A stretch of DNA of 64,000 bases from Bacteroidales bacterium (GTDB taxonomy: Bacteria; Bacteroidota; Bacteroidia; Bacteroidales; ML635J-15): the NCBI GenBank assembly GCA_031275085.1, contig JAISPG010000074.1:1-64000 (forward strand), written 5' to 3'. The position numbers were made by a program, and so were the translations under genes. Positions 472-12,071 of this stretch are shown here, in pieces. A model generated the notes under the pieces. It ran no database searches. It was not told where the DNA came from and worked only from the letters and a program-made list of their open reading frames with translations. How positions within the stretch are numbered: the first letter of the stretch is position 1; every line of letters begins with the position of its first letter.

Positions 472-2241
472 TTAATTAAGTTTTGCACCCTTTAAAGCCA
501 GCCAGCAATCCTCTTTCTTTGCCCATTCTCCATACAGATCTCCCGGTGCATTCTCTTTTATAAAATTCTCCACATTAACCATCATATCATATAGTCTATC
601 CTTTAAATCATCAGGCACAGTCTGTTTTTTCCATATCTCATTCAGATTCACAGACCCACCGTCAGTACAGGATAGCAATGCCAGAGTATAAGGCACTGTT
701 ATATACCGCATATCGCCGATGGAGTGTGGTTTTATGCCATAAATCTGTTCCGCAGTCCGGAAAAGCTTTGCTTTTGCTATTGTTTCTTCAAAATACCTGT
801 TATCCGGAATTTCAGGAAGATTGTATTTTACAAAAAATGCGTAGTTTTTCTGACTTCCTCTTACCACAATATGCGGACCTATTACCAGTTTATCTTCATC
901 ATAAACCTCATTCCAGGTATTAACGTATTTGGCCAGTTCTTCCTTGGTTAAAAACTGATTTCTGGGATTCCGCAAATCAAATGCTTTCTGTTTTGCTTTT
1001 GTGGTTCCTTCGTTCGCCCGGGCATTTTTATACTGTCCGCGGGCTCTTTCATAAAACCATCTTGTCTGATGTGACTGCCCCTGAACTGGTGGCGCCCAGA
1101 TATTGCGGGAGAGTTTTTCAAACTCTACATGGAATGGTGCATTGGAACTGAGGTCGGACACTGAGACTTTATTCTGGGTGTTTGCATACTCTGCAATGCG
1201 GCTTACTATTTCAGCAAAATTGCTTTTGTCTTTGATAACACTTAATTTTACCTGTACAAGAATATCGGTAATATCGGCCTTATCTTTCTTTGAGGTATGG
1301 TATATGGAGGCTGTAGTCTGCCCGCCGTTCACTATCTGGAAATCTTTTACTGAACTGATATAATAACCGTGTTCGTTTTGTCCCAGTTTCACATCGTCTG
1401 CTGTTGCTGCAATACCGTTGTTGTATGCCAGAAACATGTGAGGTTCGTCTATAATGGTAGTCCTGATTCCTTTGTTTATCTTACCGGTAAACTGGAGAAA
1501 TGATCGTACATTTTGCTCGAGTAACCGGGCACCATACTGCTCGTAAATGGATGCAAGGGCATCTCCGGGTATCAGTGCAAGGTATGACTGGTATTCTGCG
1601 TTATCGGTTTCTGCCCTGATGCAGGGTACCGGATAGCCCTGCTGCTCAAAGTCGATTTCTATAGGGATATATTCTTTTTCGGATATGTTGTAAAGGTAGT
1701 TCAGGTCAATAATCCTGAAATAAACCGGAATACCGTTGTGTTCCCGTGGTGTGGGGATTTCTCCGTTGTATATACCGTCTGTGATGATAAAGATATTTAT
1801 CCTGACCAGATTGTCCTTCAATGCCTGTGAAGCATTAAGAGTATGCGCAAAATCGTATATCTGTGATGACTCTTCAAGACCGGCAGCATATTCCCTGTTT
1901 TGGGTTTTACGCAGGAAAGACATAATAAGTGTGGAGGCATTGTCTGTTTCTGCCTTTTGTACACGTACAGGGTTTTCTGTACATTTAAATATGGTAATAA
2001 AAAGATCGAGAGTTTCGTAATTATCAGCAATAGCCCAAGCATTAATCTTGTGCCTGTTGCGGGCTACAGTATTTGCATGATGATATATTGTAACATCGGC
2101 TGTTTCTCCTCCATCTGTCAGAAGAGAGATAGCATGTGTGGTAAACAGCTGTTCGAGATTACCTGTTTCACCTGAGAGTTGTTCGGATTTAATATCCTGC
2201 AACATATCGGTGTAAAAAAGGTTTAGTTCGTTCTGGCGCAT
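472..2241 (-). CDS. AIPR family (abortive phage infection) protein
   Basis: 589 aa ORF with AIPR-type core 'FLAYNNGIAATAD...DFQIVNGGQTTASIYHT'; last gene of the defence operon. Confidence 0.9.
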   Translation of the reverse strand: MRQNELNLFYTDMLQDIKSEQLSGETGNLEQLFTTHAISLLTDGGETADVTIYHHANTVARNRHKINAWAIADNYETLDLFITIFKCTENPVRVQKAETDNASTLIMSFLRKTQNREYAAGLEESSQIYDFAHTLNASQALKDNLVRINIFIITDGIYNGEIPTPREHNGIPVYFRIIDLNYLYNISEKEYIPIEIDFEQQGYPVPCIRAETDNAEYQSYLALIPGDALASIYEQYGARLLEQNVRSFLQFTGKINKGIRTTIIDEPHMFLAYNNGIAATADDVKLGQNEHGYYISSVKDFQIVNGGQTTASIYHTSKKDKADITDILVQVKLSVIKDKSNFAEIVSRIAEYANTQNKVSVSDLSSNAPFHVEFEKLSRNIWAPPVQGQSHQTRWFYERARGQYKNARANEGTTKAKQKAFDLRNPRNQFLTKEELAKYVNTWNEVYDEDKLVIGPHIVVRGSQKNYAFFVKYNLPEIPDNRYFEETIAKAKLFRTAEQIYGIKPHSIGDMRYITVPYTLALLSCTDGGSVNLNEIWKKQTVPDDLKDRLYDMMVNVENFIKENAPGDLYGEWAKKEDCWLALKGAKLN

Positions 2242-4143
2242 TTATAAAAGCTGGTTTAGAGTTTGTCCGGTTTGTGTGTATACTTCGTTTAAAATATCTG
2301 ATTCGTTTAACTGAACATTCTTTTTATCTTCCGGGGCGGCTAAATAAATACAGGCGCCTTTACACATGGCATATACTGATTTCTTTGTATCATTTAAGAT
2401 TTGTTCCTCCTTATTTTCAGAAATCAATATCCGGTTTATTGGTTTACATTCAGCATTAAGTAGTTTTTTTGTTCCGTTGTATTCAAGATATCTCAGACCT
2501 TCAAGCAATTGAAATTTATACCTGTATTTATTACCTTCGTAATCCTCTTTTTCATAAAAGAGAAAAAACGGATTATCATCTGATACTTCAATAATTACTT
2601 TTGAATTGACTTTATTCAATTCTTCAAGCACTGAAAATCCGGTTAATAGTTCTTCTTTAAATACAGGCGATTTGAGATCATGGTGGGATAATGGATTTAA
2701 CAATCTGTTCTTTATTCTGTTAAGGTCCTGAATATATGGAAAAATTAATTCATATTTTACCATTAATTTATCAAACTGATCAATCAGCTTTTGAAGTCCG
2801 GCAGGACGGAATACTGCACTTTTACTACCTGCTGAGCCGCTGGGAGTAAAAAACCATGCTTCTTCATTTTCCTGTATGGTAAGCTGTGATTTTGAAACAA
2901 TAAGCTGACTCATTTCAATATCTGAGTTATCGTATCCGGGATGCAGCATATTTCCCGGCAGTATATTAAAAAACATTTGTTCAAATGCCTTACGCAGATA
3001 ATTGGCACATGCAGGATAATCACCATGTATCAGATGAAATTCTGCTCTTTCTTTATAGGTATCTGACTTGCGAATTAACGGACGTTCTTTTTCGCAGCTA
3101 TGGTTATCCACATAAAATTCTGCTTTGCTCCAGCTATCATCCAGATAGGTTTTGGCTACATTAAACCATTCGCGGTCGTAGGTTGTAAGGAATATCTGAT
3201 AATTACGTACAAAACTCTTTCCGCCAAAAAGATCGGGAGCAGTAAGGATTTTTATCAGAGGTATCCTGTTTGTCATATCGAGACCGATAAATATATCGTC
3301 GAGAAAAAGAATATTTAAATCGGTATCAGGTATGATGAACAGGTGAGCAAGGTAAACCGATATGGCCAGAGAAGTCAGACGGGCTTCGTTGAGTATATCA
3401 TCATGTTCCGGTAATTCTTTTCCAAACAGGGTTACTTTAAAGGATATTACGGGAGGAATAAGCATATCATCGGTTATTGTTCCGTCTGTATAACTGATTT
3501 TCAGGTCGCAATCTTTATGAAAATATTTTAGTAAATGGCTGGCTTTTTCTTCCAGCTCTTTAAATTGTGCTTCAGCATTGATATTGTAATCAGAAAGGTC
3601 TTCCTTATCAGGTGTTTTCCTGATTCTTTCCCACAGCTTTCTGAAAGCGACTTTATTACTGCCTTTTCCGGGTGATGCAACAGTCATTTCTGAAAATAAT
3701 CCATTTTCACCCAGAAAAAAAGAAAAGAGGTCGGGTGTCTGATTGTCAGAACGAAAATGTAGTCTGAGCAAATCGCGGTAACTGATAAATCCTTTGGTTA
3801 TTCCTGCTTCTGATATAACAGAAGTTGCAGCTGTGTTGGTTCTGGCTGCTTCTGACGAGAAATAATGCCCGGTATCATCATCGAGTGTGATATGTATATA
3901 TGGGCGCTCGGAGTTTTGCGTTTCATCGTAAAACATATTTTTCTGAAAGGGTTGTTCCGGATTTAGTGCCGAAATAAAAAAGTCTTTTATCGCTTTATAC
4001 AGTGAGGACTTTCCACTGCCGTTTTCGCCATATATCAACAGATTCTCTCCTCCGGGCAGTTCTATGGTGTACCGGTTTTCTTCCTTATCACCATTTACCA
4101 GAAAAGCTCTGTAGTTACTGATTTGAATACGTTTAATTTTCAT
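2242..4143 (-). CDS. AAA family ATPase (RecF/SMC-type, AAA_15/AAA_23-like)
   Basis: 633 aa; 'MKIKRIQISNYRAF', Walker A 'GENGSGKSS', Walker B 'ILFLDDIFIGLD'; abuts the AIPR gene and overlaps the Z1 gene by 11 bp. Confidence 0.88.
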   Translation of the reverse strand: MKIKRIQISNYRAFLVNGDKEENRYTIELPGGENLLIYGENGSGKSSLYKAIKDFFISALNPEQPFQKNMFYDETQNSERPYIHITLDDDTGHYFSSEAARTNTAATSVISEAGITKGFISYRDLLRLHFRSDNQTPDLFSFFLGENGLFSEMTVASPGKGSNKVAFRKLWERIRKTPDKEDLSDYNINAEAQFKELEEKASHLLKYFHKDCDLKISYTDGTITDDMLIPPVISFKVTLFGKELPEHDDILNEARLTSLAISVYLAHLFIIPDTDLNILFLDDIFIGLDMTNRIPLIKILTAPDLFGGKSFVRNYQIFLTTYDREWFNVAKTYLDDSWSKAEFYVDNHSCEKERPLIRKSDTYKERAEFHLIHGDYPACANYLRKAFEQMFFNILPGNMLHPGYDNSDIEMSQLIVSKSQLTIQENEEAWFFTPSGSAGSKSAVFRPAGLQKLIDQFDKLMVKYELIFPYIQDLNRIKNRLLNPLSHHDLKSPVFKEELLTGFSVLEELNKVNSKVIIEVSDDNPFFLFYEKEDYEGNKYRYKFQLLEGLRYLEYNGTKKLLNAECKPINRILISENKEEQILNDTKKSVYAMCKGACIYLAAPEDKKNVQLNESDILNEVYTQTGQTLNQLL

Positions 4144-11652: not shown

Positions 11653-12071
11653 AGGTTTTGCTTTATCTCAGTGGCAAGATTCTGTAAAGTAGTTTCCTGT
11701 TTATCTTTTTTCAGCTCACATTCCCACACAACAATTACTTTCCAGCCTGAATCCATAAGCTGCTCTCTTTTCTTTATATCATTTTCCACGTTTCCGTTTA
11801 TTTTATTCAACCACCATTCCGTACGTGTTTTTAGAACAACAAAATATCTGCAACCTTCATGTTTATGCCAGAAACATCCATGAACAAATATAACCGTTTT
11901 ATATTTTTTTAATATAATATCCGGCTTTCCTGGCAGGTTCTTATCATGAAGTCTGAAACGAAACCCCTGTGAAAAAAGATATTTTCTGACCAGAATTTCA
12001 GGTTTTGTATCTTTACCCTTTATCCGGCTCATATTATAACTTCTTGTTTCTTTTGAATGTACATCTGCCAT
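11649..12071 (-). CDS. vsr: Very short patch repair endonuclease (Vsr)
   Basis: 140 aa; 'MSRIKGKDTKPEILVRKYLF', 'LPGKPDIIL', 'FVHGCFWHKHEGC', 'WVIVVWECEL'-type ending are canonical Vsr motifs. Confidence 0.96.
   Translation of the reverse strand: MADVHSKETRSYNMSRIKGKDTKPEILVRKYLFSQGFRFRLHDKNLPGKPDIILKKYKTVIFVHGCFWHKHEGCRYFVVLKTRTEWWLNKINGNVENDIKKREQLMDSGWKVIVVWECELKKDKQETTLQNLATEIKQNL

What the first reader, a model, noticed from the sequence alone, without database searches (positions are those of the whole stretch)
472..12071. Seven-gene composite restriction/defence operon: Vsr - C5 MTase - HTH/DUF3883 - GHKL (MORC-like) - Z1 - RecF-type ATPase - AIPR
Seen: all seven genes are on the minus strand with overlaps of 4 bp (11649-11652), 14 bp (10018-10031), 4 bp (9249-9252), 4 bp (7798-7801), 11 bp (4133-4143) and a zero-nt junction (2241/2242), implying one transcript and coordinated stoichiometry. 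Known: linkage of MORC/MutL-like GHKL ATPases with DNA methylases, Vsr, Z1 and AIPR was predicted for restriction-like systems by comparative genomics (Iyer, Abhiman and Aravind 2008). Inference: the methylase marks self DNA, Vsr repairs the T:G mismatches it causes, Z1 + GHKL + DUF3883 act as an NTP-driven discriminating nuclease, and ATPase + AIPR act as a second, possibly abortive, effector module. The full seven-gene set does not match a named experimental system I can recall.
Basis: partly seen in the sequence, partly recalled or inferred. Interest (0 to 1): 0.9.

Follow-up and report, generated by a model that had tools for sequence, protein, structure and literature searches.

The report
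MZA defence operon, swapped nuclease module
This is a seven-gene bacterial anti-phage operon related to the known MZA system, in which the usual DNA-cutting subunit is missing and its place is taken by a DNA-sequence-reading domain plus an ATPase that carries the active-site signature of a tRNA-cutting toxin, so it looks like a natural mix-and-match immune system.

Summary
The seven genes exist at the stated coordinates. Three are clear homologues of MZA proteins: MORC-like ATPase = MzaB, Z1 = MzaC, AIPR = MzaE.

It is not standard MZA. MzaD, the PD-(D/E)XK subunit, is absent. The Z1 protein carries a ~300-residue C-terminal extension whose predicted structure matches DNA-methyltransferase target-recognition domains. 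The next gene, in MzaD's slot, is an SMC/Rad50-head ATPase with a helical bundle holding the invariant R-x3-E...S-H signature of PrrC/RloC anticodon nucleases.

In six such Bacteroidota loci the extension and ATPase always occur together and MzaD never does. In 32 comparison Z1 genomes the ATPase is absent near Z1, and MzaD adjoins Z1 in 29. The same domain-ATPase pair occurs in unrelated helicase-methyltransferase cassettes from several phyla. The tree fits one transfer into MZA.

Most likely mechanism: sequence-specific restriction by MORC/Z1, with an RNase-type suicide effector as second line. This is inferred and untested.

Verdict: a new variant of a known kind.

The parts
11649..12071 (-). 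Vsr-type very-short-patch-repair endonuclease, 140 aa
   Evidence: PADLOC Vsr 1.5e-39, TIGR00632 3.7e-45 (over its cut-off), Pfam 1.7e-35
10018..11652 (-). C5-cytosine DNA methyltransferase, 544 aa
   Evidence: Pfam DNA_methylase 1.6e-44; best PADLOC model DrmMII 1.2e-88; motifs FAGPGG, GGPPC, ENV, QKRHR, GNAV
9249..10031 (-). Weak HTH + NOV_C/DUF3883 protein, 260 aa; candidate PD-(D/E)XK nuclease (GYDFEI...AIEIK); accessory slot between methyltransferase and MORC
   Evidence: Pfam NOV_C 1.8e-14, HTH_23 0.011; motif; the same slot holds other genes in related loci
7798..9252 (-). MORC/MutL-like GHKL ATPase, MzaB homologue, 484 aa
   Evidence: PADLOC MzaB 1.4e-102; NCBIfam MzaB 2.3e-122, below the equivalog cut-off; Pfam HATPase_c_3 3.9e-33
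4133..7801 (-). Z1 helicase-like motor, MzaC homologue, 1222 aa, with GHVQSGKT (135), DDEAD (282) and DTLMQMGRWFG (598)
   Evidence: PADLOC MzaC 2.8e-168 over residues 45-924; NCBIfam MzaC 1.9e-197, below cut-off; motifs
4136..5029 (-). C-terminal extension of Z1 (residues 925-1222): target-recognition-domain-like beta region (about 974-1069) plus helical tail (about 1074-1218)
   Evidence: AlphaFold2 model, pLDDT mostly near 90 over the folded part; Foldseek top PDB hits CamA 8.3e-8, M.BseCI, PglX, HsdS; hhalign to tails of ATPase-linked methyltransferases 99.7%, 4e-25; weak Pfam TaqI_C 0.033
2242..4143 (-). ABC (SMC/Rad50-head type) ATPase, 633 aa, in the position of MzaD
   Evidence: Pfam AAA_23 1.3e-10; AlphaFold2 pLDDT 84; Foldseek: SMC/Rad50 heads; GENGSGKSS at residue 39
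2617..3057 (-). Helical bundle of the ATPase (residues 363-509) with invariant R384-x3-E388 ... N483-x2-S486-H487, the PrrC/RloC anticodon-nuclease-like signature; HEPN-type RNase candidate
   Evidence: Invariant in 30 of 30 and 14 of 14 homologues; motif definition from PMC2610378; HEPN profile matches are weak
472..2241 (-). AIPR protein, MzaE homologue, 589 aa
   Evidence: Pfam AIPR 1.3e-93 and AIPR_N 7.3e-38; PADLOC MzaE 8.3e-90; NCBIfam MzaE 6.2e-116, below cut-off

Best explanation
The operon is a rare variant of the MZA (class-3 MORC-Z1) restriction-like systems. Shown by sequence: MzaB, MzaC and MzaE homologues are kept; MzaD is absent; in its place the Z1 motor has gained a target-recognition-domain (TRD)-like tail and is followed by an ABC ATPase with a PrrC/RloC-like R-x3-E...SH bundle. 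This tail-ATPase pair was probably borrowed once from a helicase-methyltransferase cassette. Inferred mechanism: the C5 methyltransferase, with Vsr mending deamination damage, marks self DNA. The Z1 motor meets unmarked invading DNA through its TRD. The MORC-like clamp couples recognition to DNA attack by a separately encoded nuclease, here probably the DUF3883 protein. The ATPase docked on the TRD tail senses ongoing or blocked restriction and releases an anticodon-nuclease-like RNase that shuts the infected cell down. AIPR is an accessory effector or regulator.
For: MzaB/C/E profiles against a reference MZA locus with all five proteins identified (L004). DUF4420/MzaD absent in own assembly, in the genomes of L005-L008 and in G790, although the same search finds it in 10 of 11 (own genome not counted) and 20 of 22 comparison genomes. 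Six of six TRD-type loci have the ATPase next to Z1; none of 32 other Z1 loci does. TRD fold and strong variability of residues 925-1060 (39% mean identity against 78-85% for residues 100-700). Same tail directly before the same ATPase family in methyltransferase cassettes. Z1-linked ATPases form one group, 98/96 support. Invariant R-x3-E...SH matches the experimentally confirmed RloC triad (PMC2610378). 11-bp Z1/ATPase overlap conserved.
Against: HEPN profile matches to the bundle are weak (DUF4145 0.084, HEPN 0.12, TPR as good); the spacing E-x58-99-H is wider than the E-x36-52-H given for RloC. L006 and L192 have nearly the same Z1 (93%) and TRD (87%) but C5 methyltransferases only 47% identical, so TRD and methyltransferase need not read the same site. 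Other Z1 loci (L113, L193) lack MzaD without having the ATPase, so MzaD loss has more than one route. Not one step has been tested experimentally. Own assembly is 89% complete.
Confidence: 0.6

Rival explanations
1. An MZA-type restriction operon in which the ABC ATPase is only a DNA-handling motor that replaces MzaD's structural role; the bundle is a non-catalytic docking domain, DNA cutting is done by the DUF3883 protein, and there is no RNase suicide arm.
For: SMC/Rad50 heads are the clear structural matches; HEPN profile matches are not significant; a candidate PD-(D/E)XK motif in the DUF3883 protein; a gene for a nuclease or another defence module occupies that slot in all six TRD-type loci.
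Against: R, E, N, S and H of the signature are invariant across 30 divergent homologues down to 31% identity, which is more than docking needs; the combination ABC head + C-terminal R-x3-E...SH matches PrrC/RloC.
Confidence: 0.3
2. Two independent defence systems placed side by side: a Vsr-C5 methyltransferase-DUF3883 R-M-like unit and a MORC-Z1-ATPase-AIPR unit, without functional coupling.
For: MORC, Z1 and AIPR are 85-93% identical between L006 and L192 while the C5 methyltransferase is 47%; the genes between methyltransferase and MORC are exchanged freely, including a Menshen-like set in L192.
Against: Methyltransferase and usually Vsr accompany MORC-Z1 in most Bacteroidota loci seen, with overlapping or closely packed genes in one direction; the methylase/Vsr/MORC/Z1 linkage was already noted in 2008 (PMC2292703).
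Confidence: 0.2
3. A decayed or chance assembly of defence genes at a contig end, with no function as a unit.
For: Defence genes cluster in islands in general; the operon lies at a contig end and the assembly is 89% complete.
Against: All ORFs intact and motifs present; the MORC-Z1-ATPase-AIPR order with Z1 tail is kept in six genomes, and at least 14 further Z1-extension clusters share their longest-contig length with ATPase clusters.
Confidence: 0.03

Closest known systems
MZA anti-phage system (mzaABCDE; attributed to Gao et al. 2020 from memory, that paper is not held; protein names and definitions from NCBIfam/PADLOC)
   Same: MzaB-, MzaC- and MzaE-type proteins in the order MORC - Z1 - [x] - AIPR
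   Different: No MzaA sigma factor and no MzaD PD-(D/E)XK protein; Z1 has a TRD-like tail; ABC ATPase in MzaD's position; methyltransferase, Vsr and DUF3883 genes in front; NCBIfam equivalog cut-offs not reached
Class-3 MORC/paraMORC restriction-like operons (Iyer, Abhiman and Aravind 2008, PMC2292703)
   Same: MORC-type GHKL ATPase, SF2-like protein with DThhQXuRhFG, cytosine methylase, Vsr, AIPR
   Different: That class is described as consistently containing a predicted RE-fold nuclease gene (taken here to be DUF4420/MzaD); it is absent here
PrrC / RloC anticodon nucleases
   Same: N-terminal ABC ATPase, C-terminal R-x3-E...SH signature, linkage to a restriction system (as PrrC)
   Different: No coiled-coil/zinc hook seen; wider E-to-H spacing; no PrrC/RloC profile match among the best listed hits; activity unknown
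PLD-SNF2 helicase + Eco57I/TaqI_C methyltransferase + ABC ATPase cassettes (loci L013, L018, L037, L049, L088 and others; PADLOC helicase model C3a139)
   Same: Same ATPase family, directly behind a protein ending in a homologous TRD tail
   Different: The tail sits on an adenine methyltransferase, not on Z1; no MORC, Z1 or AIPR detected
TRD-bearing defence proteins DndH and BrxX (PMC10853773, PMC12839542)
   Same: A target-recognition domain carried on a large defence protein; in DndH together with a helicase module and an inactive methyltransferase
   Different: No Z1 or MORC; the Z1 protein here shows no methyltransferase remnant in the profile searches

Membership tests
MZA system (mzaABCDE) | MzaB-type GHKL ATPase | tested here: met
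   PADLOC 1.4e-102, NCBIfam 2.3e-122; bit score 409 below equivalog cut-off 850
MZA system (mzaABCDE) | MzaC-type Z1 protein | tested here: met
   PADLOC 2.8e-168, NCBIfam 1.9e-197; 658 bits against cut-off 1500, as also for a standard Bacteroidota locus (686 bits)
MZA system (mzaABCDE) | MzaE-type AIPR protein | tested here: met
   PADLOC 8.3e-90, NCBIfam 6.2e-116; 388 bits against cut-off 1050
MZA system (mzaABCDE) | MzaD PD-(D/E)XK (DUF4420) subunit | tested here: not met
   No match among the operon proteins or in the assembly; positive in most comparison genomes
MZA system (mzaABCDE) | MzaA sigma-70-type protein | tested here: not met
   No MzaA match among the seven proteins; the same model finds it in L004
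MZA system (mzaABCDE) | Protects cells against phage | not testable with these tools
   Needs experiment
Class-3 MORC-Z1 operon (Iyer 2008) | SF2-like protein with DThhQXuRhFG motif next to a MORC/paraMORC gene | tested here: met
   DTLMQMGRWFG at residues 598-608; adjacent GHKL gene
Class-3 MORC-Z1 operon (Iyer 2008) | Consistent RE-fold nuclease gene | tested here: inconclusive
   The DUF4420-type gene is missing; a DUF3883 protein with a PD-(D/E)XK-like motif is present
PrrC/RloC anticodon nuclease | N-terminal ABC ATPase domain | tested here: met
   Pfam AAA_23 and Foldseek SMC/Rad50 heads
PrrC/RloC anticodon nuclease | R-x3-E-x(36-52)-H triad, Ser often before His | tested here: inconclusive
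   R-x3-E and SH invariant in 30 of 30, but spacing is 98 in the window protein and 58-99 overall
PrrC/RloC anticodon nuclease | HEPN fold by profile | tested here: inconclusive
   Only DUF4145 0.084 and HEPN 0.12 in some homologues, none for the window protein
PrrC/RloC anticodon nuclease | tRNA cleavage | not testable with these tools
   Needs experiment
DNA target-recognition domain (TRD) | TRD fold | tested here: met
   Foldseek: all 44 hits with E<=0.001 shown are DNA methyltransferases or type I M/S complexes; hhalign 4e-25 to TaqI_C-bearing tails
DNA target-recognition domain (TRD) | Binds a specific DNA sequence | not testable with these tools
   Only indirect: the region is the most variable part of the protein

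The most novel reading that the evidence does not exclude
A distinct class of immune system in which a helicase-like Z1 motor carries its own DNA-sequence-reading domain without a methyltransferase, works with a MORC-like clamp, and triggers host RNA cleavage through an ABC-HEPN-like ATPase docked on that domain; the domain-ATPase pair would be a transplantable sensor-effector cassette shared with unrelated restriction systems.
Probability: 0.35. Interest if true: 0.78.

Novelty: new variant of a known kind. Interest (0 to 1): 0.6.

Why it matters
How MZA systems and bacterial MORC/Z1 proteins work is largely unexplained. A natural variant that swaps the nuclease subunit for a recognisable sequence-reading domain and a recognisable ATPase-effector suggests which step MzaD performs and makes it testable by exchanging subunits. 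It also shows that a recognition-domain/ATPase pair is a portable cassette that moved between a methyltransferase-helicase system and MZA. If the ATPase is an RNase, the operon joins DNA restriction and cell suicide in one transcript, as PrrC does with a type I enzyme.

Tried and rejected
Rejected: 'no named relative' (MZA found). Rejected: MzaD/DUF4420 fused into the Z1 extension (the predicted fold is TRD-like, not PD-(D/E)XK). Rejected: chance adjacency of the ATPase (co-occurrence; single group in the tree). A first idea that an upstream nuclease exists only in the variant was dropped: DUF3883 and HNH genes also occur in some standard loci (L196, L198, L201, L208, L214), so this is an accessory slot that is merely enriched in the variant. 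In L195 the gene between Vsr and the C5 methyltransferase is a transposase. Not used: the representative-protein search and the third homologue search.
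Full report
1. Observation. The seven minus-strand genes and their junctions are as described. Every family assignment is supported by profile searches; the HTH in the DUF3883 protein is weak (0.011). 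Operon GC is 39.0% against 32.1% in the rest of the window. The window begins at a contig end, so the sequence beyond the AIPR gene is unknown.

2. What it is. The MORC-like, Z1 and AIPR proteins match MzaB, MzaC and MzaE. A Thalassospira plasmid (L004) served as reference for the whole system: sigma-70-type MzaA, MzaB, MzaC, PD-(D/E)XK MzaD and MzaE. DUF4420 (PF14390) marks the MzaD position in the Bacteroidota loci. The Z1 protein carries the DThhQXuRhFG motif that Iyer et al. 2008 (PMC2292703) used for their third type of MORC operon. So the general kind is known. In Bacteroidota the usual layout is Vsr, C5 methyltransferase, sometimes DUF3883 or HNH, MORC, Z1, MzaD, AIPR.

3. What is different. 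(a) MzaD is absent from the operon and from the assembly (89% complete), while the same search finds it in 10 of 11 and 20 of 22 comparison genomes. (b) The Z1 protein has about 300 extra residues. Only 27 protein clusters with this extension were found, all Z1 proteins of 1205-1232 aa. Its predicted structure matches the target-recognition domains of CamA, M.BseCI, PglX and type I S subunits. Residues 925-1060 are the most variable part of the protein (39% mean identity against 78-85% for residues 100-700), as expected of a specificity domain. (c) The gene in MzaD's place is an SMC/Rad50-head ATPase with a C-terminal helical bundle in which R-x3-E and N-x2-S-H are invariant in all 30 aligned homologues. 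PrrC and RloC have a catalytic Arg-x3-Glu...His triad, where Ser often precedes His (PMC2610378). HEPN profile matches are not significant, so the RNase reading is an inference from signature and architecture.

4. Co-inheritance. Six loci carry the extension: the window, L005, L006, L007, L008 and L192. All six have the ATPase next to Z1, and none of the six genomes has a DUF4420 match. Of 32 other Z1 genomes, none has the ATPase near Z1 and 29 have DUF4420 next to Z1. Fisher values are 3.6e-7 and 3e-5, descriptive only because the genomes are related. At least 14 further Z1-extension clusters share an identical longest-contig length with ATPase clusters. The 11-bp Z1/ATPase overlap is conserved in L005, L006 and L192. 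Exceptions to 'MzaD always': G366 (L113) and G1009 (L193) have neither MzaD nor the ATPase, and in G810 (L194) the DUF4420 gene lies about 36 kb away.

5. Origin of the module. Relatives of the ATPase occur in Bacteroidota, Desulfobacterota, Planctomycetota, Cyanobacteria, Fusobacteria, Chlorobi, Poribacteria and some viral contigs. In the loci examined closely it follows a methyltransferase of Eco57I/TaqI_C type, itself behind a PLD-SNF2 helicase. That methyltransferase ends in a tail homologous to the Z1 extension (hhalign 99.7%, 4e-25). In the ATPase tree the Z1-linked members form one group against the methyltransferase-linked ones (98/96). The simplest reading is one transfer of 'recognition tail + ATPase' into an MZA operon, displacing MzaD; the direction is inferred from the wider spread of the methyltransferase-linked form.

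6. Two halves. Between L006 and L192, MORC, Z1 and AIPR are 92, 93 and 85% identical, the ATPase 66%, but the C5 methyltransferase only 47%, and the genes between methyltransferase and MORC differ completely. That slot holds DUF3883 (window), an Mrr-like protein (by eye) plus DUF3883 (L005), an RE-like 612-aa protein (L006, by eye, no Pfam match), HNH (L007; a fragment by eye in L008) and a Menshen-like NsnA-ATPase set (L192). It looks like a position for accessory nucleases or cargo. The looseness between methyltransferase and Z1 tail is evidence against a strict same-site model.

7. Mechanism. Shown: gene content, predicted folds, co-inheritance, invariant residues. From established knowledge: a C5 methyltransferase with Vsr means self-marking and mismatch repair; GHKL/MORC and SF2-type proteins act as DNA clamps and motors; PrrC is held silent by a linked R-M enzyme and released when restriction is inhibited (PMC3710099). 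Inferred: the TRD tail directs the Z1 motor to sequence; MORC-Z1 plus a nuclease attack DNA; the ATPase, docked on the tail, is a stand-by RNase; AIPR is an accessory effector or regulator.

8. Confidence. Identity as an MZA-related variant about 0.9; TRD-like fold on Z1 about 0.9; module in place of MzaD about 0.8; RNase activity of the ATPase about 0.5; full mechanism about 0.35. By features it should not be filed as an MZA system proper, because two defining subunits were tested and not found; it works in the MZA manner at most. Literature limits: Gao et al. 2020 and Krishnan et al. 2020 are not in the held library, so prior description of this ATPase family or variant cannot be excluded.

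Noticed in passing
L018:3309-11971, L088:2840-11365, L037:2984-11560 and similar loci among L009-L088: A three-gene cassette PLD-SNF2 helicase (~1100 aa) + Eco57I/TaqI_C methyltransferase (~1200 aa) + ABC ATPase with the R-x3-E...SH bundle, spread over several phyla and at least one viral contig; may be a separate restriction/suicide system.
   Followed up: partly
L192:13064-16516: A Menshen-like set (NsnA 456 bits, a DUF3696-type ATPase, a 280-aa protein) lies inside the MZA-like operon, between the C5 methyltransferase and MORC genes.
   Followed up: partly
window:7798-9252 and MORC genes of L002-L007, L110, L192: The N-box of the MzaB-type GHKL proteins reads ADILDNS or similar, with Asp where the catalytic Glu of MutL/GyrB is expected (from general knowledge), in 9 of 9 examined.
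   Followed up: no
L193:3006-12178 (G1009) and L113:4757-12779 (G366): Z1 operons with neither DUF4420 nor the ABC ATPase: further MZA-like variants (L193 has a 176-aa unknown gene before a 1054-aa Z1).
   Followed up: no
L013:4345-11770 and L019:3969-11737: Two copies of the large protein plus ABC ATPase pair in tandem in one locus, possibly two specificities side by side.
   Followed up: no
L002:2117-5496: In the Hymenobacter plasmid MZA operon, genes annotated as a sensor histidine kinase (734 aa, weak REase_II match) and a hypothetical protein sit between methyltransferase and DUF3883; perhaps the HEF_HK / Response_reg_2 pair of PMC8011034.
   Followed up: no
window:1-471: The operon's AIPR end lies 471 bp from the contig end, so an attachment site or further genes on that side cannot be seen.
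   Followed up: no
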